Of a DNA stretch of 36,139 nucleotides, positions 1 to 33,039 are shown in pieces; the first letter of the stretch is position 1; each line of letters starts with the position of its first letter. The DNA lies in the IMG/VR virus record IMGVR_UViG_3300028920_000168, positions 1-36,139 of that record, one strand, 5' to 3'. Origin of the DNA: a virus. The notes below the pieces were generated by a model. That model saw only the letters and a list, made by a program, of their open reading frames with translations. It was not told where the DNA came from and did no database searches. Position numbers and translations under genes: made by a program.

Positions 1-1692
1 TATTCCAAATGTGATCGTCTTAGCGGCACGCCTATAGAACTTCAGCTCTTCACCGCTCAGATCTTCAACTGACTCATCTGTGAATCCGAACATCTTTTTC
101 ATGTTATTATAGTGAATGTCACCTTCCACGCATGCTTTCCTCAACCCTGCATCACCAGAGAGATGAGCTAGCATACGAACTTCAGCTTGACTATAGTCGG
201 CCGCGATTATGGTGTATCCTTTCCTCGCTTCAAAAATATTTTTAATAACCTTATCCTTAGGGATTCCGTGGATATTCGGATTTCCTGAGGATAGCCTAGC
301 TGTACGGGTACCTATCATCTTGAAGTCTGGAGATATGAATTCATCATTCCATAACCTCTTGATTATTCCATCGTGATAAGCTCCCATCCTCTTAGCAACT
401 AATCTTCGGTTAGCCAGAGTTGCAGGAAATTCATGTTGAATCCCGAGCCAGTACAGCATGAATAGCGATGTGCTATCCGACTCCATATTACTGGTCGTTT
501 GAGTCGAAGTTGACTTCCAGCAGTTTATGGCATCGTGTGAAGCTTCAGGCATAACCTCATCAATCTTTCGCTGGATCAATTTTTGCGACATCTTTCCGTT
601 CTTATTGCTCATCTTGACTAGCTTCAAATCCTTGTATAGTATCTTCTTCACTTGGGGTACTGAATTAAAATTGACTCCTTCATCGCAATATTTCTTCAGG
701 ATTTCATCGCATTCATTAATTTTTCCTTCCCAGATTTCCTTAACATGAGCAAGGCCATCCTTTGATACTTTCAAACCCTTTATCCACATATCGATAAAAA
801 GTTTAGCTCCAGAAAGCATTATGTCATCATGGATCTTCATCTCAGTCAGAGTCAGTATCTTTTTGAGACGGTTGAATACCCGAAACGTAGCATCACAATC
901 TGCCGCATTATATAGTAAGACCTTCTCCTTATCTGACTCCCAGGCTTCCTTCATTTTCTTCACATCTATTCCATAGTCACCTAGATCAACGTATGCAAGA
1001 TGCTTAAGTCCATGAACTCCCTTCCGTTCATCCCTAATGTAACTCATAAACATAGTATCATACCTGTAATTAAGATTTATTCCATGGAGTGACAGCCATG
1101 GAACATCATACTGACCGTGGTGGAATATGCATTCTTTATTTCGAAAGAACTCATTCAACATCCCGATGAATTCAGGATGGTTGATAAATGGAAATGCTCC
1201 TCCATTACCTGGAGCATCCGATATCCCTATGGATATCAACTCATCATTACGGGCATTAAGGCCAATGGTCTCGATATCAACAGATATCAGCTTCGACTTA
1301 TGGTACATATTCAATACAGCTTCTATATCCCCTACTATATAGTCTTCATATGGAGGTACCGGAACTCTCCATTCACCTTTCATATATAAAGCGATTAATC
1401 CAAGTTGATCCGCCAGTGACCTAAATACATCCACATTATTATATACTTCGCGTATATGATTGATTATGAATACATTAGGTTCGAAGAACCTTCCGAGTAC
1501 ATCAGCAATTTTCCTTCGCTTCTTATATGGAGCCATATCATCCTTTTCAGATACAGCATTGACTACATCATCATCATGTATTATTTCTCTGCTGAACATG
1601 ATTTGATTTTCCTTTACCCCGAATGGTTTTAGCATCTGTCTAATAACGCTCTTCTGACGTATGGCATATACTCCGACAAAGTTTATCTTCAT
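1..1692 (-). CDS. polA: Family A DNA polymerase with 3'-5' exonuclease (C-terminus cut by window edge)
   Basis: This is the replicative DNA polymerase, of the Pol I family. I translated 564 residues before the window ends. Residues 139-141 (DIE), 191-196 (HHGQYD) and 261-265 (YNAAD) fit the three DEDDy exonuclease motifs. Residues 461-479 carry a TxTARLSS-like motif 1, 499-512 are motif A (DYSQAEVRMLAHLS), and 554-564 begin motif B (RRAAKTITFGI). Motif C lies outside the window. There is no 5'-3' exonuclease domain. About 130 N-terminal residues before the exonuclease are unassigned. The ATG shares one base with the stop of the upstream synthetase gene (TAATG), so the two are translationally coupled. 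A PolA-type polymerase next to a PurA/PurZ-family gene matches the DpoZ-PurZ neighbourhood known from 2-aminoadenine phages, but nothing in the visible motifs proves that specificity. Confidence 0.93.
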   Translation of the reverse strand, partial: MKINFVGVYAIRQKSVIRQMLKPFGVKENQIMFSREIIHDDDVVNAVSEKDDMAPYKKRRKIADVLGRFFEPNVFIINHIREVYNNVDVFRSLADQLGLIALYMKGEWRVPVPPYEDYIVGDIEAVLNMYHKSKLISVDIETIGLNARNDELISIGISDAPGNGGAFPFINHPEFIGMLNEFFRNKECIFHHGQYDVPWLSLHGINLNYRYDTMFMSYIRDERKGVHGLKHLAYVDLGDYGIDVKKMKEAWESDKEKVLLYNAADCDATFRVFNRLKKILTLTEMKIHDDIMLSGAKLFIDMWIKGLKVSKDGLAHVKEIWEGKINECDEILKKYCDEGVNFNSVPQVKKILYKDLKLVKMSNKNGKMSQKLIQRKIDEVMPEASHDAINCWKSTSTQTTSNMESDSTSLFMLYWLGIQHEFPATLANRRLVAKRMGAYHDGIIKRLWNDEFISPDFKMIGTRTARLSSGNPNIHGIPKDKVIKNIFEARKGYTIIAADYSQAEVRMLAHLSGDAGLRKACVEGDIHYNNMKKMFGFTDESVEDLSGEELKFYRRAAKTITFGI

Positions 1693-2807
1693 TATCGGAG
1701 TTTCCTTGCATCAAACTTGTTACTATTTCCGCATCCATGTCCAAACAATTTTACTTTAGTGCCATACGGTATAGAGGATTCAATGAAACTTAGGAACTGC
1801 CAGAACTTATTATCCTTATACTGATCCTCAGTTTCTAAATGAGGTATCCCATTTTCCACCATATCAAGATAATCAAAGTATTCACTCGAACTCCAAGGTT
1901 TGAAGAACATCAGACTTCCACTTTTATCATATACTCCAATGTTCATTTCTATATCGCACAGCACATCAATTTTAGAAAGTGCTAGGTAAGACGGTCGCTC
2001 AATCATGATAGCCCTGCACAGGTTTCGAAGGTTTAGCCATCCTATCCTTCTTTTCCTTCCGCTCACAGATCCTATCTCATTTCCTTTTTCTCTGATATAA
2101 TTCGCTGACTCAAACCCCATTCCATCAAAATCTCCTGGGCCAACCTTAGTAACATATGGTTTTATGCACATGATTCTTTCATCTACCAGAGAGGGACTGA
2201 ACCCTGCTTGAGACCCGATTGAACTAAATCCACAGTTTGAAGTGGTAACTATAGGATATTCCCCCTGGTGGATGTCAAGTCCAAATCCATGAGCTCCTAT
2301 GAATAATATATTTTTGTCAAGCGAATTGTTTAAATAATCCGCAGTATCTATGGTTGATATTCCATTGACGCTAATTGACCCCATCATCTCAGATTTCCTC
2401 ATCATCCTATCGACATTGCATGGGCCTACTCCAGTCCCTACAGAACCAAATTTTGAAATGTTTTTTTCACTATCCTCAACCATATGTTTAGATAATATTA
2501 CAGGAGCAGTCTTACTGACTAAAACTTCAAAGTTAGGATTTTTTTGTTTAAGCTCCCTTATTTCTTTCATAAGCACATCGAGGTTAATGCACATTCCTTC
2601 AGTCAAAACCAATGTAGATCCTGCTTTTAAACCTCCTGATGGCAATAATCTGAATACAATTTTTTCATTATTGTCAGTTGTTACAGTATTTCCAGCATTA
2701 CTACCCCCGTTGAACCTGACGAATATATCGTACTCGTCTTTTATGAAATTAACAATTTCAGCCTTACACTCATCTCCATATTGTCCTCCAATGATTACTG
2801 TTTTCAT
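1692..2807 (-). CDS. Adenylosuccinate synthetase family enzyme (PurA/PurZ-like)
   Basis: Members join L-aspartate to a purine nucleotide using GTP: PurA acts on IMP, and phage PurZ acts on dGMP on the way to 2-aminoadenine. At 371 residues it is shorter than bacterial PurA (about 430), as phage and archaeal forms are. The P-loop is GDECKAE (11-17) rather than GDEGKGK. The catalytic Asp is present (D12), whereas published PurZ enzymes typically lack it. The residue matching E. coli His41 is Asn40 (NAGNT), and the one matching Gln224 is His173 (GAHG). The aspartate loop GRKRR (250-254) and the GTP-specificity motif KID (279-281) are kept. An unusual FGHGCGN lies near the C-terminus. The ATG at 2807 has GGAGG 5 bases upstream, which is better than the ATG at 2819. 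It overlaps the HNH gene by 4 bases. Family membership is secure; the substrate is not. Confidence 0.88.
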   Translation of the reverse strand: MKTVIIGGQYGDECKAEIVNFIKDEYDIFVRFNGGSNAGNTVTTDNNEKIVFRLLPSGGLKAGSTLVLTEGMCINLDVLMKEIRELKQKNPNFEVLVSKTAPVILSKHMVEDSEKNISKFGSVGTGVGPCNVDRMMRKSEMMGSISVNGISTIDTADYLNNSLDKNILFIGAHGFGLDIHQGEYPIVTTSNCGFSSIGSQAGFSPSLVDERIMCIKPYVTKVGPGDFDGMGFESANYIREKGNEIGSVSGRKRRIGWLNLRNLCRAIMIERPSYLALSKIDVLCDIEMNIGVYDKSGSLMFFKPWSSSEYFDYLDMVENGIPHLETEDQYKDNKFWQFLSFIESSIPYGTKVKLFGHGCGNSNKFDARKLR

Positions 2808-3241
2808 ATGAACCTCCATCTCCTTCCGGTATTAATGTTACTTATTGTCTTGCTGGATACTCCATAAAAGCTTGCTAATATACTTTGGTTGCATCCAGTC
2901 CTGAGACTGGATTTGATAGCCTTGATTTCCTCAAGTGATAACTTGATATTCCCATGCCTTTTCTTGACTGCCATATCAACCATATTGTCTGATTGATTCC
3001 CGGATATCAAGTGGTTGAAGTTTATGCATTTTCTGTTATCGCACTTATGAAGAACGACCTCCGGAGTTACGCCGCACATTAGGAACATATACCTTGGAAG
3101 ACTTATTTTCTTCCTATTGATAGTGATGTAGCAATATCCAGTTGAGCTTGGTTTATGCGAAGTGCATTCATGGCAGTATGGATCTATTCCTAAACGCTCG
3201 TTCCTCTCATAATATACTTCCTTATATGAAATTTTCCTCAT
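2804..3241 (-). CDS. HNH endonuclease, homing-type
   Basis: This is probably a free-standing homing endonuclease that cuts DNA at an allelic site lacking the gene. The central region has the HNH core, with His and Cys around LHKCDNRKCINFNHL and then a conserved NxxDN segment. The basic C-terminal part looks like the small helical DNA-binding (NUMOD-like) tail seen in these enzymes, with a helix-turn-helix-like stretch ending in NINTGRRWRF. The ATG at 3241 is preferred over 3292 because AAAGGA stands 7-8 bases before it, while the longer form would start inside a stem-loop. The gene sits between dpdA and the PurA/PurZ-like gene and overlaps the latter by 4 bases, as expected for an element inserted into a compact operon. 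It has no obvious metabolic link to its neighbours. Confidence 0.85.
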   Translation of the reverse strand: MRKISYKEVYYERNERLGIDPYCHECTSHKPSSTGYCYITINRKKISLPRYMFLMCGVTPEVVLHKCDNRKCINFNHLISGNQSDNMVDMAVKKRHGNIKLSLEEIKAIKSSLRTGCNQSILASFYGVSSKTISNINTGRRWRFI

Positions 3242-3261
3242 ATCAAATCCTTTCAGAGTCC

Positions 3262-3293
3262 AATGCAACCCTGCCCGAGGACAGGATTGCATT
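3262..3293 (-). promoter_or_regulatory. Stem-loop in the leader of the HNH gene
   Basis: A 12-base-pair stem (AATGCAATCCTG against CAGGGTTGCATT, one G-U pair) with an 8-base loop lies between the dpdA stop and the HNH start. No U-tract follows on the minus strand, so it is not a classic terminator. It may lower translation or stabilise processed RNA, as hairpins before phage homing endonuclease genes often do. Confidence 0.5.
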
Positions 3294-3309
3294 TATTAAT
3301 CTACTCTTA

Positions 3310-4035
3310 TTATATTTTATATAGTTTTGCTATATTTTCAGATAGCAATTTGCTTCCTGCCTTATATGCAAACATGAACGTTCTACTTCTGCAAGGTACG
3401 TCCGAATCAATTCTTTTCTTATTTTGAGCATATAATGCCGCATAGCATGTGTCCAGTGACCTTATTGAGTTATCCAAATCCTTTAGATCTCTCAGTTCAT
3501 CCAGCGAATTAAGACCAAGCACATGGATTTCTTTTTGTATTCCTTCGCTGAATAGCAGATGTGAAATGAATGTCCTCCTATTCACTTCTTTTTGAATCAT
3601 GAACTTACTGATTCCCAATGTATGGATACATCCTTGATCTGCTAGTATCTTAGCGCATTCGACGTATTCACTTCCATCATATCCTTGAGGAACAGCCATC
3701 AGTTTTCCCTTATACTTCCAGCACTTAGTTTTCAAGAATGATGTGAAATCCTTCATCTTCGATATAGTGGAATTCTTATCATATAAACTATCCGGAATCA
3801 CTACTTCAGATGGATTGATATAGCTCATGACTTCATGAAGTTCCTCGAATGTCAGCTGATTCCCTTCGGCTTCACCATTGTCAAGTACCACATATGAAGT
3901 TTCAGCAACTTTTCTATAAAACTGAGCGTATGATTCGTTGTTACGAGCGACGTGAGCTAAACACATGTGGATAGAACTATCCTTGGTTTCATTAAGATTC
4001 CCAACTGGCACTATATTAGCTATTTTCAAATTCAT
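3310..4035 (-). CDS. dpdA: DpdA-like DNA 7-deazaguanine transglycosylase
   Basis: Phage DpdA proteins are relatives of tRNA-guanine transglycosylase that exchange guanine in DNA for a 7-deazaguanine. The 241-residue protein has the expected order of motifs: LDNGEAEG at 51-58, VVIPDS at 78-83 (family D-rich substrate loop), MAVPQG at 113-118, LGI at 140-142, HVLGL at 171-175, and IRSLDT at 191-196. The last Asp lies where the TGT nucleophile would be. It lacks the long zinc-binding C-terminus of bacterial TGT, as the small phage forms do. The start is uncertain: ATG at 4059 overlaps nrdD more, and I chose 4035, which has GGAG 3 bases upstream. Its operon mates folE, queD and queE supply deazaguanine precursors, which strengthens the call considerably. 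Confidence 0.82.
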   Translation of the reverse strand: MNLKIANIVPVGNLNETKDSSIHMCLAHVARNNESYAQFYRKVAETSYVVLDNGEAEGNQLTFEELHEVMSYINPSEVVIPDSLYDKNSTISKMKDFTSFLKTKCWKYKGKLMAVPQGYDGSEYVECAKILADQGCIHTLGISKFMIQKEVNRRTFISHLLFSEGIQKEIHVLGLNSLDELRDLKDLDNSIRSLDTCYAALYAQNKKRIDSDVPCRSRTFMFAYKAGSKLLSENIAKLYKI

Positions 4036-5773
4036 CAACTCCATTCCATTTTCTATCATAGAACTCTACTTGTCTTTCTTGACTCCAGCTACTGACTGGG
4101 ACAAAGTATCCTATTATACGGCTCCAAATTTCTTTAATAGGTTTTCCACATTGGCAAACCCTAACGTTCCCTAATGGGAGTATATGATCATCTTCACACT
4201 GTGTAAATCCATAGTTTACAGCTAAATGAGGGAGTCCATATTTTATAGCTAACAAAATGATTTGCTTCATACCAGCTGGATTAAGCTTTGGAACATTAAT
4301 ATGGCATATCCCTCCACCAGAGAGGGCATTGACTAACCCTGCGGATATCTTGATCCTTTGCTCTATCGGCATATCGACGTGAAGCGGAACAAATTGATTG
4401 CTGTATATGCTATACTTCTGAACTTCCTTGCCGAAGAACTCCCTATCTGACTTAGCCATCTTCACACATGCTCCCTCTCCAGGGACTTCTTCGACGTTGA
4501 AGATCAAGTCAGATTCATGCTTATCAATCTCCTCCTTTATAGTCTTAATTATCACTTCCATCATGTTATAGGATAATCCAAGGATTTCAACTGCTTCATA
4601 AATCCCAACTATCCCTATGGTTGCAAATAGATTCATGAGCTTAATAATTCCTAATGGCTTGATAAACTTATTATATCCGTTATTAGCGGCATCCTCTAAG
4701 ATTTTTCTGTGAGCCTCATGCAATTTGATGATATCACCGACGTCATCCTTTAGGATTTCCAGGAATGTCGTTGGATTCCCTCTACTCAGGTATGCAAGGT
4801 GAGGAAGGTTGATCGCAATAACTCTGGACGAACCTACATCGATACCTCCGTTTCCGAAGCTGTCAATCCTATCGAGATCATTCACGAATCTACAGCACAT
4901 GGATACCTTATTATCATCTGAGTTAGCCAGGTATATATTAAAATTCCCTAGCCTTGAGTTAGTGTCCGAAACGTAATCCAGGAATTCATCGTCAGACTTG
5001 TTTATGTTGAATGTGCTGACTGGGAATCGATAAGGTATTCCGGATTCAGTACATCTCATCAATTCAGCGTACAATTCCTGAACTCTGAGCATCACGTATA
5101 AATCGAATTCGTAGTCCTTGAAAATATTTCGTGCGATGTCCCTCGAAAACATTGAGAAATTTGTAAACGGGGATTGGCCAGCAGTCCTGTTTTCATTGTT
5201 GAACGCCAGTACTATCCTCATTAGGTCTTCCATAATTTCTGAATCACTTACTTCACGTCCAGCTTTCTCAATGAACTGAGCGTATAGTACAAAGAAGTCA
5301 GATGGAGCTATAGCTCCCATGCAATAATTGGCCAATGATGACATCGCCTCTATCACGACAGTTGTAAATTCTCTGTGATTCTTAGGAACTATCCTGACTC
5401 CATTCGACTCATATCCTTCTTCAGCTAACTTTCTCAGACTTATGGCTACGCAATATATACTTCGAATATCAGACAAATCATGAATATACGTCCTGTTATT
5501 TATAACATTTCTCATTATCTGATCCCTATCAGGTGAATCGAGATACCTGTATATAGTGAATAGACTTTCCGTCTTATATTGTTTATCCGATGTCATCCAC
5601 TTCTTCTTCACTGGGGATATAAAATTCGCATTAGCATTTGGATCCGATTTGTCTTCATTATCCTTCATAAATTTGATATTATCATTTATAAATTCTTTAG
5701 TCGGGATACAGAAATTCTCTCCATTATCTTTAGTATTCCGAATTATTTCTACAAATTTATTATATTCAATCAT
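4016..5773 (-). CDS. nrdD: Anaerobic (class III) ribonucleoside-triphosphate reductase
   Basis: This enzyme reduces ribonucleoside triphosphates to deoxy forms using a glycyl radical, so it works only without oxygen. At 585 residues it is shorter than E. coli NrdD (712) and has no recognisable N-terminal ATP-cone. The central SMCCRFVNDL followed by a glycine-rich loop and INLPHLAYL fits the active-site region. Near the C-terminus a Cys pair (CQCG) precedes RIIGYF, which matches the glycyl-radical RxxGY motif, followed by SSW and an E-x-x-x-R-like tail. AGGAG precedes the ATG by 7 bases. The upstream gene encodes its activase and stops 2 bases before this start. It supplies dNTPs for phage replication and marks the host as anaerobic or facultative. 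Confidence 0.95.
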   Translation of the reverse strand: MIEYNKFVEIIRNTKDNGENFCIPTKEFINDNIKFMKDNEDKSDPNANANFISPVKKKWMTSDKQYKTESLFTIYRYLDSPDRDQIMRNVINNRTYIHDLSDIRSIYCVAISLRKLAEEGYESNGVRIVPKNHREFTTVVIEAMSSLANYCMGAIAPSDFFVLYAQFIEKAGREVSDSEIMEDLMRIVLAFNNENRTAGQSPFTNFSMFSRDIARNIFKDYEFDLYVMLRVQELYAELMRCTESGIPYRFPVSTFNINKSDDEFLDYVSDTNSRLGNFNIYLANSDDNKVSMCCRFVNDLDRIDSFGNGGIDVGSSRVIAINLPHLAYLSRGNPTTFLEILKDDVGDIIKLHEAHRKILEDAANNGYNKFIKPLGIIKLMNLFATIGIVGIYEAVEILGLSYNMMEVIIKTIKEEIDKHESDLIFNVEEVPGEGACVKMAKSDREFFGKEVQKYSIYSNQFVPLHVDMPIEQRIKISAGLVNALSGGGICHINVPKLNPAGMKQIILLAIKYGLPHLAVNYGFTQCEDDHILPLGNVRVCQCGKPIKEIWSRIIGYFVPVSSWSQERQVEFYDRKWNGVDEFENS

Positions 5774-5774
5774 G

Positions 5775-6527
5775 TCAGAACTCCTTTACTCTAAAATACG
5801 TGGTGAATTGGTCAGGTAATTCCAGTAGATCTATAGTATGGTACACGTGTTGATCCGAACCATACTGTCCTACCTTTATCACGTGGCACAGTTTCTTTAT
5901 GCGGTTAGGGACGTCGAATAATTTGTTCCCTGTATATAATATATTATATACGCCGATGTCATAGAAAAACTTCATGAGTGAAAATAGGGCATCCTCCTGG
6001 AGTGTTGGTTCCCCTCCCTGGTAAGTGACCGCCTTATAGTCGAATAAGCTCGTAATGATGTCCTTGACTATATCCTTAGCTGTTTTCGTCACTCCTTTAG
6101 TTATATCAAATAATCCAGGGTTATGACATCCTTTGCATCTGATATTACATCCTTGGAAAAAAATGATAGGAGATACATATCCGAAGCTGTCTTGAGTAAC
6201 TATCTCAGATATATAATTTTTTGGAACTTCCAGTTTTATGTTTGATAAATCATTATAATTCATTCTTAGTCTGCATATATCAGCTATAATATATGCATAA
6301 TTGGCGACATCAGCACATTCCTTTATTATCTCAGTCTCACGAAAAAGGTTTATTTCATATCCAAGTTCAGCTACTTCCTCTATCATTTTCACATACATCT
6401 CATTTATCGGGGTATTGATAGACCATCCGTTTCTCTTATGTCTTTTTTCCTCAAATTTTTTAATCATCGCGAACCTGAAGTGATCTAGGTTCCGCTTTAT
6501 CTTTTCCATATCCGAAATTATTTCCAA
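5775..6527 (-). CDS. nrdG: MazG-like domain fused to NrdG radical-SAM activase
   Basis: There are two domains. Residues about 1-95 carry a MazG/dUTPase-like helical pattern with EEVAE at 50-54 and E70-x-x-D73 in ECADVANY, the metal-binding layout of all-alpha NTP pyrophosphatases. Residues about 105-250 form a radical-SAM domain with C127-x3-C131-x2-C134 and GGEPTLQ at 171-177, as in NrdG, which makes the glycyl radical on NrdD. NrdG proteins are usually about 150-190 residues, so the N-terminal part is an addition. The start is TTG at 6527, with AGGAGG 8 bases upstream; the in-frame ATG 18 bases later has no site. The MazG-like part could trim a nucleotide pool (dGTP to dGMP, as MazZ does in 2-aminoadenine phages) or clean up abnormal dNTPs. 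That role is inference. Confidence 0.88.
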   Translation of the reverse strand: MEIISDMEKIKRNLDHFRFAMIKKFEEKRHKRNGWSINTPINEMYVKMIEEVAELGYEINLFRETEIIKECADVANYAYIIADICRLRMNYNDLSNIKLEVPKNYISEIVTQDSFGYVSPIIFFQGCNIRCKGCHNPGLFDITKGVTKTAKDIVKDIITSLFDYKAVTYQGGEPTLQEDALFSLMKFFYDIGVYNILYTGNKLFDVPNRIKKLCHVIKVGQYGSDQHVYHTIDLLELPDQFTTYFRVKEF

Positions 6528-6529
6528 AA

Positions 6530-6877
6530 CTAACGCCTCCTAACTTCAGAGCTAAACTTATCATCCTCGCACACTTCGACGCTGTATATATTATATCCAT
6601 CATCTCTCATCATATTGTATATCCACTCAGCCATATGTTCGCATGAATCTGTTGAACAATTTTCCTTGAATTGATCCCAATAACTTTTTATAAAGGATTC
6701 ACATACATCTTTAAACATGATGTATTCGATTTCCCTATTGGAATGCTCAACCTCAACTTGTATAATATATGTGAAATTATGATAATGAGGGAGTTTCAGG
6801 TATTTAACTTCAAACGGAGCATTTGGATAATGATGAGCCCCTAAGTATGAAGATTTCACTTTTACTAATTTTCTCAT
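6530..6877 (-). CDS. Divergent QueD/6-pyruvoyl-tetrahydropterin-synthase-fold protein
   Basis: I see a degenerate copy of the QueD fold in this 115-residue protein. Alignment by eye with the QueD encoded at 8157-8534 gives GAHH (13-16) over the first zinc His, HYHNFTY (31-37) over HGHSYRC, YIMFKDV (52-58) over VINFSDL, and CEHMAEWI (79-86) over AENIAAWI. VEVCED (100-105) lies over VKLWET, so the HxH zinc ligands and the late Glu (E104) are kept. The catalytic Cys before HxH and the LDH catalytic pair are missing. It is probably a different enzyme or a binding protein acting on a pterin-like or deazapurine intermediate. It overlaps folE by 4 bases (ATGA) and lies 2 bases before nrdG, so it belongs to the operon. 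Specific function unknown. Confidence 0.62.
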   Translation of the reverse strand: MRKLVKVKSSYLGAHHYPNAPFEVKYLKLPHYHNFTYIIQVEVEHSNREIEYIMFKDVCESFIKSYWDQFKENCSTDSCEHMAEWIYNMMRDDGYNIYSVEVCEDDKFSSEVRRR

Positions 6878-7422
6878 ATCTCACCGATTAGCTTTAGGAA
6901 TTCATGCTTTGTAGAGGTTTGAGTGAAACATCCACGATATATAGACGTTATTGTATCAGCTTCCATCTTTTGAACTCCCCTCATTCCCATACATAGATGT
7001 CTAGCTTTTAATATAACACCGACACCAGTAGCATTCACATACGTTTCAATATCATCTACTATCTGTTTTTGCATTCTTTCCTGAATCTGGAGTCGTCTAG
7101 CATAACACTCAACTAATCTTGCCAGTTTACTTAATCCAACTATTTTTTTACTCGGAATATATCCTATGTGAGCTACTCCTATAAAAGGAAGTATATGATG
7201 TTCGCACACACTTGCAAATCCGATATTTCTAACAACAATCATATTATTACTTTCGGCTTCGAATTGCCTAGACAATATCTCTTCAGGATTTTCCTTATAT
7301 CCTTTGAATAAAAATTCATATGCCCGTTCAACTCTCTCGGGAGTTCTTTGCAATCCTTCTCTTGATACTCCTCCTTTCTCAATTTGATTTAAAATGCTTA
7401 TAATTTCATTTTTGCAGTTCAT
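6874..7422 (-). CDS. folE: GTP cyclohydrolase I
   Basis: FolE converts GTP to 7,8-dihydroneopterin triphosphate, the first step of both folate and 7-deazaguanine synthesis. The 182-residue length is typical of the single-domain core. Residues 73-76 (CEHH) and C144 in RHLCMGMRG supply the zinc ligands, and the block HIGYIPSKKIVGLSKLARL is the family signature. AGGAGG precedes the ATG by 7 bases. With queE and queD just upstream in the operon and dpdA downstream, the likely purpose is 7-deazaguanine for DNA rather than folate. Confidence 0.96.
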   Translation of the reverse strand: MNCKNEIISILNQIEKGGVSREGLQRTPERVERAYEFLFKGYKENPEEILSRQFEAESNNMIVVRNIGFASVCEHHILPFIGVAHIGYIPSKKIVGLSKLARLVECYARRLQIQERMQKQIVDDIETYVNATGVGVILKARHLCMGMRGVQKMEADTITSIYRGCFTQTSTKHEFLKLIGEI

Positions 7423-7440
7423 TCACTTTCCTCCTTAATT

Positions 7441-8106
7441 TTATTTTGCATCTAAAATTTTGTGCAATTGGCAGGACAGTCTCAGAGTCCCAGGTATACT
7501 TTTCCGTTGCTCGAGAAATTTTTCAACTATCAGATCCGGCCTATGGATCTTTCCATCCTGCTCAGTCCTGCATTGCAAATAGATCTCTGAGTTGCTGAAC
7601 AACGATTCCCATACTGATGCCCATGACTTGAGAAATACAAAGCTTTCATCTTCCCTCCCGATTACAACTTTTAATGTAACCCTCGATCCATCAATTTTCC
7701 TGAGTATCTCGATATACTTCTTCATATCATACTCAATGTGATTCTTAGGTGAAAATGTGATATGATCAATCATATAAATCCACGGAGCATCAAGCGAATG
7801 TGTTTCAACATGAACTCTAAATTCTCTAGTTTGCAAAATTCGAATTAATTTGGTGCAATCCTGAAGAGTAGGATCACCGCCAGTTATTACCACTATCGGT
7901 ATATTAGAATCAGAATCCCATGGATCCAATTTATTCACAATTTCATCAATTTTCATAGTTTCGCCAGACTTCATATCCCATGAAGCTTTAGTATCACAGA
8001 ACTTGCATCTGGCATTACATCCAGCAAGCCTTATGAATTGAGCAGGATACCCGGAAAACCTGCCCTCTCCTTGAATTGTGTTAGTAATTATTTCAGATAC
8101 TTCCAT
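7441..8106 (-). CDS. queE: 7-carboxy-7-deazaguanine synthase
   Basis: QueE is a radical-SAM enzyme that contracts 6-carboxytetrahydropterin to 7-carboxy-7-deazaguanine (CDG). The 221-residue protein begins with the QueE hallmark QGEG (12-15). It then has C30-x3-C34-x2-C37 for the iron-sulfur cluster, and ITGGDPTLQ around 75-83. Both the spacing C-x3-C-x2-C and the GGDP loop fit QueE; NrdG in this operon has GGEP instead. GGAGGG lies 5 bases before the ATG. A hairpin separates it from queD. Confidence 0.95.
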   Translation of the reverse strand: MEVSEIITNTIQGEGRFSGYPAQFIRLAGCNARCKFCDTKASWDMKSGETMKIDEIVNKLDPWDSDSNIPIVVITGGDPTLQDCTKLIRILQTREFRVHVETHSLDAPWIYMIDHITFSPKNHIEYDMKKYIEILRKIDGSRVTLKVVIGREDESFVFLKSWASVWESLFSNSEIYLQCRTEQDGKIHRPDLIVEKFLEQRKSIPGTLRLSCQLHKILDAK

Positions 8107-8124
8107 ATTGCCCTCCGATTATTA

Positions 8125-8150
8125 ATGTGGAGTGAATAATCACTCCACAT
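8125..8150 (-). terminator. Stem-loop between queD and queE (possible attenuator)
   Basis: A perfect 11-base-pair stem with a 4-base loop (ATGTGGAGTGA, then TCACTCCACAT) sits between the queD stop and the queE ribosome binding site. Only short A/T runs follow on the minus strand, so full termination is doubtful. Partial termination or an RNA processing site that adjusts queE level is more likely. Confidence 0.45.
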
Positions 8151-8156
8151 CATTCA

Positions 8157-8534
8157 TTACCTGAATTCAATATATACATGAGAATTAGCAGTTTCCCATA
8201 ATTTTACACTAATAACATGCAATGATTTATTATAATTAATTTTTCTTAGTTCATCAGATGCCTTCTCAGCTATCCATGCAGCTATATTTTCAGCAGTCGG
8301 TAATTCATTAAGCACATTATTCAAGTCCTCATGATCCAGCATATCTTCTATCCCTCTGCATATACTACTGAGGTCAGAAAAATTTATAACTATTCCATCT
8401 TTAGTCATATTCCCAGATACAGCTATTTGACATCTATATGAATGTCCATGATTCCTAGCACATTTCCCCATACCAGGAAGATTATGAGCCGCCTCAAATG
8501 AGAATTCTTTAATAGTACTTATTCTCAATGTCAT
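8157..8534 (-). CDS. queD: 6-carboxy-5,6,7,8-tetrahydropterin synthase
   Basis: QueD turns dihydroneopterin triphosphate into 6-carboxytetrahydropterin, the QueE substrate. The 125-residue protein has the zinc ligands H17 (EAAHNL), H29 and H31 (NHGHSY), the catalytic C25, the D67-H68 pair in MLDHEDLN, and E114 in WETANSH, so all the key residues are present. ATG at 8534 overlaps the upstream stop (ATGA), but its GGGGAGG is only one base away. TTG at 8528 (MRISTIKEF) has that site at 7 bases and may be the true start. Confidence 0.95.
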   Translation of the reverse strand: MTLRISTIKEFSFEAAHNLPGMGKCARNHGHSYRCQIAVSGNMTKDGIVINFSDLSSICRGIEDMLDHEDLNNVLNELPTAENIAAWIAEKASDELRKINYNKSLHVISVKLWETANSHVYIEFR

Positions 8535-9076: not shown

Positions 9077-10426
9077 TTATATATAACATTGAGCCGCTTT
9101 CATTCCAGAAATGGCACATGATATAAAGCTATCCAAGAACCCAGTTGAATGACCGACCAAATGGATATTGCACTTGTTCGCATTATTCAACCCGAAAGTA
9201 TCTTCCTCTACTTGATATTTATTAGCATAATACTTCATCTCAGGGAAGTATATCAGAGGATCTCCACTTGATACATCAACTATCTTGCCTAGTTCTCTAA
9301 TGAAAGCTCTAAACCCATTGCTAATTGAATAATCCATCTGACCAAGGTCTATCCCCGATACAGATTGAGAATGATAAGTTGAAGTAAATTCGTATGTAGG
9401 TCTGAAATTCATGAAATCTGATACTTTTTGAACTCTAGATGATAAAAACCTAACATTAGTCGTATTACATAATTTCGCCAAGTGCCTCACATACTCTTGA
9501 GGTCTACCTGTTACAATTCCAACAGGGATTTTGCATTGGATTGAGAAGTTCGACCTATTTGATTTCATATTTTCATTAAGGTATGAATGTCCATTAACAT
9601 TAATTATTTCATAATCCTTATGATGTTCATTTGTTATATACCCTTGCTGATTGCAACAGAAGCTTCGGAACTCAAACCCGTTATGCTTGTAAGTTAGTTT
9701 GAAGTCATAGAACTTATCGAATAGCGGCTTCAGAACATTTGCATCTGCTTCGAACCTTATTCCAAAGCAGGCTTCCCCAGGTACACGTGATATGTTCAGC
9801 TTCTTAGATTGCGAAGCTAACCATTTGGATCCAGCTAATCCAGTGCCTATGAATATGACATCTGGTTGATGAATCAGAAAACCATGAGCATAAGTGTTGC
9901 TCTGACTAGTCACCTTCCCATCCAATTCCACATCTAACACGTCTGTATTATATAAAAACTTGATTCCTCTTTCCTTCAGAACTTTTGAAAAGTTTCCTAC
10001 GAAATCCTGAATCCCATCGCTTCCATAGTGCCTGAGTTGATACTCTTCCAGTGTAAACTTAGTGCCGAGGTACTTCTCGTATGCCTTTTCATCAAAGCCT
10101 TTTGTTATTCCCCCAAAGCTATGAGTTTCCATGAGGTCGTCTATCCGGTTAAAAAATTCTTCATCATCCTGTTTGAATATGGATTTGGATGTGTTAGTCC
10201 CCCTCTTCAGGGAATAAGTATTCTTCCCATCCGAGAAACCACCGGCTCCACCTTCACCGCATAGGATGTCGCATGTACCGCAATTGCATAATCCAGATTT
10301 AGAGCATTTCCTATCCTCAATCTTACTCCCAGACTCAATCACCAATATATCATTATCCTTATTCTTTGATAACTCATATGCGGCGAATAGATTTGCTGGG
10401 CCTGCTCCAATCAAAAGTATTTTCAT
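9077..10426 (-). CDS. FAD-dependent dehydrogenase (COG2509-like)
   Basis: The N-terminus has a dinucleotide-binding fold (GAGPAN at 7-12, acidic E31 at the end of the second strand) for FAD. A Cys-rich segment follows (C41, C47, C49, C52, C56) and then GEGGAGGFSDGK at 57-68, which is characteristic of the uncharacterised FAD-dependent dehydrogenases of COG2509. Near the C-terminus there is a second nucleotide-contact region around LVGHSTGFLDSF. The 449-residue length is typical of that family. These enzymes are common in anaerobes but have no established role in phages. It lies between the SSB-like gene and the ATPase in the same operon as the deazaguanine genes, so a part in base or cofactor chemistry is possible. 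No substrate can be read from the sequence. Confidence 0.8.
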   Translation of the reverse strand: MKILLIGAGPANLFAAYELSKNKDNDILVIESGSKIEDRKCSKSGLCNCGTCDILCGEGGAGGFSDGKNTYSLKRGTNTSKSIFKQDDEEFFNRIDDLMETHSFGGITKGFDEKAYEKYLGTKFTLEEYQLRHYGSDGIQDFVGNFSKVLKERGIKFLYNTDVLDVELDGKVTSQSNTYAHGFLIHQPDVIFIGTGLAGSKWLASQSKKLNISRVPGEACFGIRFEADANVLKPLFDKFYDFKLTYKHNGFEFRSFCCNQQGYITNEHHKDYEIINVNGHSYLNENMKSNRSNFSIQCKIPVGIVTGRPQEYVRHLAKLCNTTNVRFLSSRVQKVSDFMNFRPTYEFTSTYHSQSVSGIDLGQMDYSISNGFRAFIRELGKIVDVSSGDPLIYFPEMKYYANKYQVEEDTFGLNNANKCNIHLVGHSTGFLDSFISCAISGMKAAQCYI

Positions 10427-31128: not shown

Positions 31129-33039
31129 TTAAGGTATTTTCGCAAGTATGAAACTGAGTACTAGCTCCGTCTGAACCAAAGTATAACTCATTCCAACGTC
31201 GGCCTCAACTTTTGTATATGATTGAGTTTCATCATGCTGAATTAAAGTATAACTCCTGTCAGCATCGCACTCGACTTTTGTATAAGATTCCGTTTCAGAT
31301 TTTATGTCGTCTGCTAAGACTTTATCGTAGCTCTGAGTTTCATCATGTTGAATTAGTGTAAAGCTTCTATCTGCATCACATTCAACTTTAGTATAACTCT
31401 CAGTTTCTGATTTTATGTCGTCTGCTAACACCTTATCATAGCTTTGAGTCTCATCATGTTGAATCAGAGTAAAGCTTCGGTCTGCATCTGCTTCTACTTT
31501 AGTATAGGATTCAGTCTCAGATTTTATACTATCTGCTAATACTTTATCATAGCTCTGAGTTTCATCATGCTGGATTAGTGTAAAACTCCTATCAGCATCT
31601 GTTTCTACTTTAGTATATGATTGAGTTTCATCATGCTGAATTAATGCGTAGCTTCTGTCAGCATCTGACTCTACTTTCATATATGACTCCGTCTCAGATT
31701 TTATGTCATCCGCTAAGACTTTGTCATAACTTTGTGTCTCATCATGCTGTATTAATGTAAAACTTCTATCTGCATCTGATTCTACTTTAGTATATGATTC
31801 TGTTTCAGATTTTATATTATCTGCTAATACTTTGTCATAGCTTTGAGTTTCATCATGCTGTATCAAAGTAAAACTTCTGTCAGCATCTGATTCTACCTTA
31901 GTATATGACATCTCAGCATCTGCTTCTACTTTAGTATATGATTCTGTTTCAGATTTTATATTGTCTGCCAGCACCTTATCGTAACTTTGTGTCTCATCAT
32001 GCTGAATCAATGTGAAACTCCTATCAGCATCGGATTCAACCTTAGCATAACTCATTTCTGCATCAGCTTCAACTTTATTATATGACATTGCAACATCAAC
32101 TTCAACCTTAGTATATGACCTAGTTGCATCTGCTTCAACTTTAGTATAAGAATCTATTATATTAAATATACCAGAGGAATCATCTGCCGCTATTGCCGCA
32201 TCCTGACCTCCTGAACACGATGCGCAGGCTTCCCCATCAAATCCTTCCCATTTCCAGGTTGAACTTCCCGCAGTATCGACTACTATCAGAGTGAAATCTG
32301 AAGTTCCTTCGATATATGAATATCCTTTGATTTTAACATTAGTACATGCAGTTGTATGGAATTCAACTAATCCTGTGGTTAACACGCCATAGAAGTCGAT
32401 TTCTATATCAGCAGTATCAACTCCAACCAACCTCACAGCATTTTCGACTGCATTACCCCCAGTAAATCCTATATATTTTAGCTTCAATTTTAATCTATCT
32501 GCCGCGGCAGTTGCTAATACTGCTCTAGCGGCTTCAACGGAGGATGATCCATCTCTCCACTCAACTTTTATATCAAGGTCAGCTGCTTGGAAATGCAGAG
32601 GATTTGTAAGTCCATCAATACCAGCTATGCATATGAAGTTATGGAAAACTATGCTAGCTCCTGAGAATACTATACTAGCACCTGTATCAGTTGAGAAGGT
32701 TAATTTTGCCCTATCATCTCCTTCACCTACAGCTATCCACTGTACTCCTGCTGTACTAAGAGTCAACGCTCCGGCACTAGCTAATGTTTCAGCATGACCT
32801 ACAGCCACATAAACTCTATCACCATTATTTGCAGTAACTTGGCTATCAGCGTAATCCATAGTTTTGAATGCCTTGGCCCATGTTGATCCATCATTGCTGT
32901 CAGAACCGTTCGTATAGTCAACATAGTAACAGTTTCCTGCTACAGGAGCCGCTATGTCAGCTCCTTTTAATCTTAATATTCCGTTAACATTCCATGCCGC
33001 TCCGCCTTGCTCTGCATAATTCAGAGTATTTGCTCCCAT
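31129..33039 (-). CDS. Head fibre-like protein with 11/15-residue tandem repeats
   Basis: In this 636-residue protein, residues about 1-295 form a beta-helix-like head, starting near YYVDYTNGSDSNDGSTWAKA and running through many short strand repeats. Residues about 297-617 contain about 27 units: 21 of 11 residues (SYTKVEADADR, SFTLIQHDETQ types) and six of 15 (SYDKVLADNIKSETE). The repeats vary mainly at one or two sites. The SYTKVE core resembles the YTKxEVD motif of phage fibre coiled coils. It is encoded right after the capsid gene, so a head fibre or decoration is likely. The many Ser/Thr/Tyr residues make it a possible substrate for the neighbouring glycosyltransferases (inference). Confidence 0.75.
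   Translation of the reverse strand: MGANTLNYAEQGGAAWNVNGILRLKGADIAAPVAGNCYYVDYTNGSDSNDGSTWAKAFKTMDYADSQVTANNGDRVYVAVGHAETLASAGALTLSTAGVQWIAVGEGDDRAKLTFSTDTGASIVFSGASIVFHNFICIAGIDGLTNPLHFQAADLDIKVEWRDGSSSVEAARAVLATAAADRLKLKLKYIGFTGGNAVENAVRLVGVDTADIEIDFYGVLTTGLVEFHTTACTNVKIKGYSYIEGTSDFTLIVVDTAGSSTWKWEGFDGEACASCSGGQDAAIAADDSSGIFNIIDSYTKVEADATRSYTKVEVDVAMSYNKVEADAEMSYAKVESDADRSFTLIQHDETQSYDKVLADNIKSETESYTKVEADAEMSYTKVESDADRSFTLIQHDETQSYDKVLADNIKSETESYTKVESDADRSFTLIQHDETQSYDKVLADDIKSETESYMKVESDADRSYALIQHDETQSYTKVETDADRSFTLIQHDETQSYDKVLADSIKSETESYTKVEADADRSFTLIQHDETQSYDKVLADDIKSETESYTKVECDADRSFTLIQHDETQSYDKVLADDIKSETESYTKVECDADRSYTLIQHDETQSYTKVEADVGMSYTLVQTELVLSFILAKIP
31180..32151 (-). repeat. 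Coding tandem repeat array of the fibre gene
   Basis: The DNA is a tandem array of 33- and 45-base units, in register with the 11- and 15-residue protein repeats. It is prone to unequal recombination, so copy number may vary between isolates. Confidence 0.9.

What the first reader, a model, noticed from the sequence alone, without database searches (positions are those of the whole stretch)
1..8534. Possible dual DNA base modification: 7-deazaguanine and 2-aminoadenine genes in one operon
FolE, QueD, QueE and a DpdA-like transglycosylase are the known set for placing 7-deazaguanine in phage DNA. The same operon also encodes a PurA/PurZ-family synthetase, a MazG-like domain and a PolA-type polymerase, the combination linked to full A-to-Z replacement in 2-aminoadenine phages. 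If both work, one genome would have modified G and modified A, which I do not know to have been described. The PurZ role is uncertain because D12 is kept. A PurA that only boosts dATP supply is the simpler alternative.
Basis: partly seen in the sequence, partly recalled or inferred. Interest (0 to 1): 0.88.

Follow-up and report, generated by a model that had tools for sequence, protein, structure and literature searches.

The report
Phage DNA-guanine rewriting operon with PurA
A fragment of an uncultured virus of bacteria carries a gene set for replacing guanine in its DNA with a 7-deazaguanine, plus a built-in copy of the adenine-making enzyme PurA that is not the 2-aminoadenine enzyme PurZ but whose substrate pocket is changed in a way seen only in this virus lineage.

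Summary
The genes are there, on one strand and nearly touching: QueD, QueE, FolE, a second QueD-like protein (PTPS2), a MazG-like/NrdG fusion, NrdD, a transglycosylase, an HNH gene, a PurA homologue and a truncated PolA. The 7-deazaguanine half is well supported. The transglycosylase folds like TGT, matches phage phiST's homologue, and its relatives lie in folE/queD/queE clusters. No QueC was found; across 125 phage loci, PTPS2 and QueC never co-occur (28 versus 75). The 2-aminoadenine half is not supported: the PurA homologue keeps Asp13, fails the PurZ model, and no DatZ was found; MazG and PolA also occur beside such transglycosylases without PurZ. Nine other IMG/VR viruses carry the same operon with PurA between transglycosylase and PolA. 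These ten PurAs appear to form one clade. Nine have His at E. coli Gln224, a base-pocket residue that is Gln in all 80 cellular and 78 of 80 other viral sequences compared. The window's copy has also lost catalytic His41. My reading: a new variant of the DpdA system with a captured, altered PurA, which acts either on a 7-deazapurine nucleotide (about 0.4) or simply on IMP/dIMP (about 0.35). Whether adenine is modified is open.

The parts
1..1692 (-). DNA polymerase I, family A (564 aa, cut by the contig end): 3'-5' exonuclease and start of polymerase domain
   Evidence: Pfam DNA_pol_A 110 bits, exo 72 bits; DpoZ model only 60 bits of 500; nearest named phages include Youna2 and BSP7, which carry 7-deazaguanine clusters
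1692..2819 (-). PurA homologue ('PurA*', 375 aa): Asp13 kept, Gln224 to His, His41 to Asn
   Evidence: Pfam 227 bits; residues by alignment; nine relatives in the same operon
2804..3292 (-). HNH (homing-type) endonuclease, probably an insertion
   Evidence: PHROG 59, E 4e-21; an HNH gene is not seen at this place in relatives L187, L194, L225, L233
3310..4059 (-). DpdA-type DNA-guanine transglycosylase (249 aa), DpdA3-like by kinship
   Evidence: homologues in folE/queD/queE clusters; TGT fold, best viral match phiST; profile hits DNA-guanine transglycosylase 7ui4; Asp60, Asp90, His179, Asp203 invariant in 13 sequences
4016..5773 (-). NrdD, anaerobic ribonucleotide reductase
   Evidence: Pfam NRDD 252 bits; relatives have a different reductase at this place
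5775..6527 (-). MazG-like domain (about residues 1-105) fused to NrdG-type radical-SAM activase
   Evidence: NrdG3 56 bits; MazG weak; MazG at the same operon position in relatives
6530..6877 (-). PTPS2: QueD-like protein (115 aa), candidate CDG decarboxylase (DpdL)
   Evidence: Pfam PTPS 25 bits; 30% identical to phi13:1 gp034; never found with QueC
6874..7422 (-). FolE, GTP cyclohydrolase I
   Evidence: Pfam 225 bits; above NCBIfam folE cut-off
7441..8106 (-). QueE, 7-carboxy-7-deazaguanine synthase
   Evidence: PHROG QueE 121 bits; NCBIfam queE 108 bits, under cut-off
8157..8534 (-). QueD, 6-carboxytetrahydropterin synthase
   Evidence: Pfam PTPS 97 bits
8531..9049 (-). DUF669 / ssDNA-binding-like protein, operon neighbour kept in relatives
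   Evidence: DUF669 34 bits; matches in relatives
9077..10426 (-). FAD-dependent dehydrogenase-like protein of unknown role, kept upstream in relatives
   Evidence: PHROG 12409, E 9e-17; matches in relatives; homologues in Campylobacter phages

Best explanation
This is a QueC-less 7-deazaguanine DNA-modification operon of an uncultured tailed-phage lineage. FolE, QueD and QueE turn GTP into 7-carboxy-7-deazaguanine (CDG). PTPS2 takes the place of QueC and most likely converts CDG to 7-deazaguanine. The DpdA-type transglycosylase swaps guanine in the phage DNA for that base. RNR and MazG-like parts tune the dNTP pool. The lineage has captured a PurA between DpdA and PolA. It is not PurZ. It keeps the 6-oxopurine chemistry (Asp13; His41 in 9 of 10), but its base pocket changed at Gln224 to His. 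I think it works on a purine (deoxy)nucleotide of this pathway, most likely a 7-deazapurine nucleotide, giving an adenine-like 7-deaza nucleotide after host PurB. Shown here: gene content, fold and kinship of the transglycosylase, PTPS2/QueC exclusion, the conserved operon, the residue signature. Inferred: every enzymatic step. Sub-probabilities: G in the DNA is modified, 0.85; the synthetase is not PurZ, 0.9; PurA* acts on a 7-deazapurine nucleotide, 0.4.
For: Gene set and tight packing. DpdA: TGT fold in the PDB (E 7e-6) and phiST homologue (E 5e-17, TM 0.85); profile hit to DNA-guanine transglycosylase 7ui4; homologues sit in folE/queD/queE clusters. PTPS2 and QueC exclude each other in 125 loci (75 QueC only, 28 PTPS2 only, 0 both). 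Nine other distinct viruses have the same operon with PurA between DpdA and PolA; PurA* occurs in 10 of 19 PTPS2 loci and 0 of 23 QueC loci of DpdA type. His at Gln224 in 9 of 10 operon PurAs, in 0 of 80 cellular and 0 of 80 other viral sequences. Gln224 equals S-2L PurZ Q190, a base-pocket residue (mapping). The ten form one clade, support 78/79. PurA on 7-deaza nucleotides has a precedent: host PurA is proposed for the last steps of tubercidin (PMC6112128).
Against: One operon PurA (L296) has Gln224, so His is not strictly needed. Asp13 is kept, which argues against a 2-amino (guanine-like) substrate, and no IMPDH/GMP-reductase homologue was found to remove the 2-amino group. No PurB was found. 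L297 passes NCBI's purA cut-off while having His224, so it may be an ordinary PurA. The window's own copy has lost His41 and several glycine-loop residues and may be inactive. PTPS2 as decarboxylase rests on position and on my memory of Cui et al. 2023, which is not held. All records are fragments.
Confidence: 0.55

Rival explanations
1. The PurA is an ordinary metabolic gene: with the phage RNR it raises AMP/dATP supply during infection, and its presence in the 7-deazaguanine operon has no chemical link to the modification. Gln224 to His is a tolerated drift in one lineage.
For: Asp13, Lys16, His41, Arg303, Arg305 and Asp333 are kept in 9 of 10. Many other phages carry PurA without this operon. 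L297 passes the purA equivalog cut-off. L296 keeps Gln224. An RNR sits in the same operon.
Against: Gln224 is otherwise invariant: 80 of 80 cellular and 78 of 80 other viral sequences, PurZ included. PurA* is confined to the QueC-less, PTPS2-type DpdA operons.
Confidence: 0.35
2. The window's copy is no longer a catalyst: it is decaying, or acts as a binding or regulatory subunit.
For: His41 to Asn (the only such case in 168 sequences), also Gly15 to Cys, Gly17 to Ala, Lys18 to Glu, Thr129 to Val, Glu221 to Ile; longest branch of its group.
Against: The ORF is full length, with Asp13, Lys16, Asn38, Arg143, Arg303 and Arg305 kept, so it does not look like a pseudogene. Relatives keep His41. Only one copy is known.
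Confidence: 0.2
3. One reading: the synthetase is a PurZ, and the phage DNA carries 2-aminoadenine together with 7-deazaguanine.
For: With PurZ in the tree the window sequence falls beside PurZ (95/96). A MazG-like domain and a PolA are present. PHROG 1211 labels the family after the PurZ-type enzyme.
Against: Asp13 kept; PurZ model 106 of 300 bits; placement is a long-branch effect that goes when PurZ is removed; no DatZ; PolA is not DpoZ-like; MazG and PolA also accompany such DpdA genes in non-Z phages.
Confidence: 0.06
4. The base exchange happens at the nucleotide level: MazG gives dGMP, a transferase (DpdA3-like protein or the ~110-aa domain fused to PTPS2) swaps in the 7-deaza base, a kinase rebuilds the triphosphate and the phage PolA inserts it.
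For: PTPS2, a ~110-aa GSTxFK...SDxIYVVN domain and MazG are fused in one protein in L194, L225, L233, L273 and L297. A P-loop kinase-like gene directly precedes dpdA in phi13:1, Youna2, BSP7 and MA9V-3.
Against: Characterised DpdA enzymes act on DNA (PMC6884629). The ~110-aa domain has no match to PF05014 or the PDB and is not found in the window. The kinase is not seen in this operon.
Confidence: 0.15

Closest known systems
Cellulophaga phage phi13:1 / phiST 7-deazaguanine cluster
   Same: queD, queE, folE, MazG-like gene, 115-aa PTPS2 homologue, DpdA homologue in one run, no queC
   Different: has a kinase-like gene next to dpdA, DNA polymerase III type, no PurA
Weizmannia phage Youna2 and Bacillus phage BSP7 clusters
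   Same: queD, queE, folE, DpdA homologue and PolA directly after dpdA
   Different: have queC, no PTPS2, no PurA; kinase-like gene before dpdA
Characterised DpdA / DpdA2 systems (phages 9g, nt-1; PMC6884629)
   Same: CDG pathway plus DNA-guanine transglycosylase
   Different: use QueC or Gat-QueC to make preQ0 or archaeosine; another DpdA subfamily
Z-phages (S-2L, phiVC8, Ghobes, Wayne; PMC8342488, PMC12884076)
   Same: an adenylosuccinate-synthetase homologue with nucleotide hydrolases and a polymerase in one cluster
   Different: PurZ has Ser for Asp13 and Gln at 224; DatZ, DutZ or DmtZ, not found here; no 7-deazaguanine genes described
Tubercidin and toyocamycin pathways of Streptomyces (PMC6112128, PMC7492574)
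   Same: CDG enzymes with PurA-type conversion of a 7-deazapurine nucleotide to the adenine form
   Different: ribonucleotides for antibiotics; phosphoribosyltransferase and GMP-reductase homologue present, not found here

Membership tests
7-deazaguanine (DpdA-type) DNA modification system | FolE, QueD and QueE for CDG | tested here: met
   QueE under its NCBIfam cut-off but clear by PHROG and Pfam
7-deazaguanine (DpdA-type) DNA modification system | DNA-guanine transglycosylase in the cluster | tested here: met
   kinship, fold and profile; activity not tested
7-deazaguanine (DpdA-type) DNA modification system | QueC or Gat-QueC (preQ0/ADG/G+ branch only) | tested here: not met
   no PF06508 match in the window or seven relatives, all fragments; PTPS2 excludes QueC elsewhere, so this points to the CDG/7-deazaguanine branch
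7-deazaguanine (DpdA-type) DNA modification system | Modified guanine in virion DNA | not testable with these tools
   no virion; needs LC-MS
DpdA/TGT transglycosylase | TIM-barrel TGT fold and conserved acidic residues | tested here: met
   AlphaFold pLDDT 82, pTM 0.83; TGT top in PDB; Asp60, Asp90, Asp203 invariant
PurZ (2-aminoadenylosuccinate synthetase) | Ser (or Gly) in place of Asp13 | tested here: not met
   Asp in the window and all nine relatives; PMC12884076 for the rule
PurZ (2-aminoadenylosuccinate synthetase) | Passes the curated PurZ model | tested here: not met
   106.5 bits of 300
PurZ (2-aminoadenylosuccinate synthetase) | Groups with PurZ in a tree | tested here: inconclusive
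   beside PurZ with PurZ in, with its operon kin without; one clade with kin not rejected, p 0.39
Z-DNA cassette | DatZ-type dATP triphosphohydrolase (PurZ phages) | tested here: inconclusive
   no PF12917 match in the fragment or seven relatives; records incomplete
Z-DNA cassette | DpoZ polymerase | tested here: not met
   DpoZ model 60 of 500 bits for a truncated protein; nearest named phages are not Z-phages
PurA (adenylosuccinate synthetase) | Catalytic Asp13 and His41 | tested here: not met
   Asp13 kept but His41 is Asn in the window; both kept in the nine relatives
PurA (adenylosuccinate synthetase) | Passes the curated purA model | tested here: not met
   window 223.5 of 395.6 bits; L194 314; relative L297 passes with 397.8
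DpdL (CDG decarboxylase, Cui et al. 2023) | Membership of the published DpdL family | not testable with these tools
   paper not held; identity of PTPS2 with DpdL is from memory; consistent with QueC exclusion

The most novel reading that the evidence does not exclude
PurA* turns a 7-deazapurine deoxynucleotide into its adenine-like form, so that in this lineage both purines of the phage DNA lack N7: 7-deazaguanine from the transglycosylase and a 7-deazaadenine-type base made as a nucleotide and inserted by the phage PolA.
Probability: 0.12. Interest if true: 0.92.

Novelty: new variant of a known kind. Interest (0 to 1): 0.62.

Why it matters
It defines a QueC-less branch of phage guanine replacement with a clear genetic rule (PTPS2 instead of QueC) and a lineage in which an adenine-synthesis enzyme is built into that operon with a changed base pocket. 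If the PurA acts on 7-deaza nucleotides, phages would have a route to modify adenine as well as guanine, and a new enzyme for making 7-deazapurine nucleotides. Even if it does not, it separates PurA-bearing 7-deazaguanine phages from 2-aminoadenine phages, which gene names alone confuse (PHROG 1211 labels both alike).

Tried and rejected
PurZ reading: rejected on residues, models and context. Single-protein scans of IMG/VR with the PurA and DpdA proteins found nothing; a DNA pattern for the window's NAGNT motif found no other case, so the His41 loss is unique so far. An FolE scan gave 80 loci, none of which matched the window's DpdA or PurA by tblastn; only the PurA alignment scan found the relatives. 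A claim that His224 is universal in these operons was dropped when L296 turned up with Gln. QueC, PurB, YfbR/DatZ, IMPDH/GMP reductase, PF05014 and NADAR searches in the virus records were negative, with the limit that all are fragments. The ~110-aa domain fused to PTPS2 looks to me like a nucleoside 2'-deoxyribosyltransferase (as DmtZ is), but Pfam, PHROG, NCBIfam and PDB profile searches gave no support, so it is only a lead. Promoter and terminator scans were at chance level.
Full report
Setting. The window is a complete IMG/VR record of 36,139 bases without end repeats, so a fragment. No tRNA gene; G+C about 37-39%. The genes of interest lie on the minus strand, from the polymerase cut by the left end to QueD at 8534, followed upstream by an ssDNA-binding-like protein, a FAD-dependent dehydrogenase-like protein, a Sak4-like protein, a helicase and a primase; the other half of the record holds head and tail genes.

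Observation. Missing from it are NrdD, the NrdG-type part of the MazG-like ORF, an HNH gene between PurA and DpdA, and a second QueD-like protein of 115 residues (PTPS2). The MazG assignment rests on a weak profile score but is backed by MazG domains at the same place in relatives.

The transglycosylase. It has no Pfam hit. Its phage homologues are in Cellulophaga phi13:1/phiST, Youna2, BSP7, Chryseobacterium MA9V-3 and Campylobacter CP220; in all but CP220, whose fetched stretch shows none, folE and queE lie close by. An AlphaFold model from eight sequences (pLDDT 82, pTM 0.83) finds tRNA-guanine transglycosylases first in the PDB (E 7e-6) and the phiST homologue first among viral models (E 5e-17, TM 0.85). 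A 13-row profile finds DNA-guanine transglycosylase 7ui4 (E 2.4e-6). From memory of the abstract of Cui et al. 2023 (paper not held), proteins of this kind are called DpdA3 and are tied to complete replacement of guanine; I did not test that.

PTPS2. It keeps three histidines expected for a QueD-type zinc site and has its own invariant SCE and ED motifs. Homologues lie in QueC-less clusters of unrelated phages. Over 125 loci in hand with FolE plus QueE or this type of DpdA, 75 have QueC only, 28 PTPS2 only, none both (Fisher p 1.4e-14; the loci are not independent, so the p-value is only a guide). So PTPS2 very likely does the step on CDG that QueC does elsewhere. From memory, Cui et al. predicted a CDG decarboxylase, DpdL, giving 7-deazaguanine; PTPS2 is the natural candidate. 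The expected base is 7-deazaguanine, or CDG itself.

The PurA homologue is not PurZ. It keeps Asp13, which is Ser in phage PurZ. It scores below both curated cut-offs, purA 223.5 of 395.6 and PurZ 106.5 of 300. In a tree with PurZ it lies next to PurZ on a long branch, but forcing it together with its operon relatives is not rejected (p 0.39), and with PurZ left out it joins them.

A conserved operon. A scan of IMG/VR with a PurA alignment, and later scans with PurA* and DpdA alignments, found nine other distinct viruses with the same arrangement: QueD, QueE, FolE, PTPS2 (often fused to a further domain and MazG), a ribonucleotide reductase, DpdA, PurA*, PolA. They are L187, L194, L225, L233, L273, L275, L289, L296 and L297; QueD, QueE or FolE were not detected in the part of L296 in hand. 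Among 55 loci of this DpdA type, PurA is in 10 of 19 with PTPS2 and in none of 23 with QueC, several of which are near-duplicates. The ten PurAs form one clade with moderate support (78/79).

The residue signature. At E. coli Gln224, nine of the ten have His; L296 has Gln. In a set of 168 distinct sequences, His occurs only in operon members, and Gln in all 80 cellular and 78 of the 80 other viral sequences, PurZ included; the other two have Leu. On the tree this needs two changes, one gain and one loss. Gln224 aligns with Q190 of S-2L PurZ, named in that structure among the residues that form the base pocket. The window protein alone also has Asn for His41, an otherwise invariant residue, and several glycine-loop changes, so its own activity is doubtful.

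Mechanism. I take the guanine modification as likely (0.85). For PurA* I weigh two readings about equally. One: it acts on a 7-deazapurine nucleotide; precedent, tubercidin, where host PurA is proposed to act on the 7-deaza IMP analogue (PMC6112128). For it: the operon-bound base-pocket change. Against it: Asp13 suggests a substrate without a 2-amino group, and no reductive deaminase was found. Two: it makes AMP or dAMP as usual, to feed dATP synthesis with the phage RNR. For it: full catalytic set in nine of ten, and one member passing the purA model. PurZ-like use of dGMP is unlikely (0.06).

Limits. No virus here is cultured, all records are fragments, no activity was measured, and the literature library lacks the key 2023 paper. 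Absence claims apply to the fragments only.

Noticed in passing
125 phage loci in hand: QueC and the 115-aa QueD-like PTPS2 never occur together (75 and 28 loci), which suggests that PTPS2 replaces QueC in a whole class of phage 7-deazaguanine clusters.
   Followed up: partly
L003 11487-11984; L004 9387-9938; L005 11357-11920; L008 9540-10010: A P-loop nucleotide-kinase-like gene sits directly before dpdA in these phages; CP220 (L007) has an annotated thymidylate kinase just after it. This could mean nucleotide-level base exchange.
   Followed up: no
L194 6596-7501; L233 6623-7543; L273 6590-7528; L297 7357 onward: PTPS2 is fused to a conserved ~110-aa domain (GSTxFK...SDxIYVVNxxGYxGxST) without database match and to a MazG domain; by eye it resembles nucleoside deoxyribosyltransferases.
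   Followed up: partly
window 9077-10426: A FAD-dependent dehydrogenase-like gene is kept upstream of this operon in several relatives and has homologues in Campylobacter jejuni phages, so it may belong to the modification.
   Followed up: no
window 4016-6527 versus L187 6244-7980, L194 7498-9234: The reductase between MazG and DpdA is swapped: anaerobic NrdD/NrdG in the window, a Ribonuc_red_lgC-type enzyme in relatives, which suggests an anaerobic host for the window virus.
   Followed up: no
L194 11001-13622, L225 10989-13514, L289 11121-13631: The PolA of the relatives carries an N-terminal stretch (VGEAPGxEE...GRPFVGRAGKLLRE) that looks like a uracil-DNA glycosylase domain.
   Followed up: no
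L094 and L096 (human-gut phage-labelled contigs): Two PurA homologues with Leu at Gln224 and other pocket changes, another divergent group.
   Followed up: no
window 31129-33039: The ORF holds many near-identical repeats (SYTKVESDADRSFTLIQHDETQSYDKVLADDIKSETE), probably a structural or receptor-binding protein.
   Followed up: no
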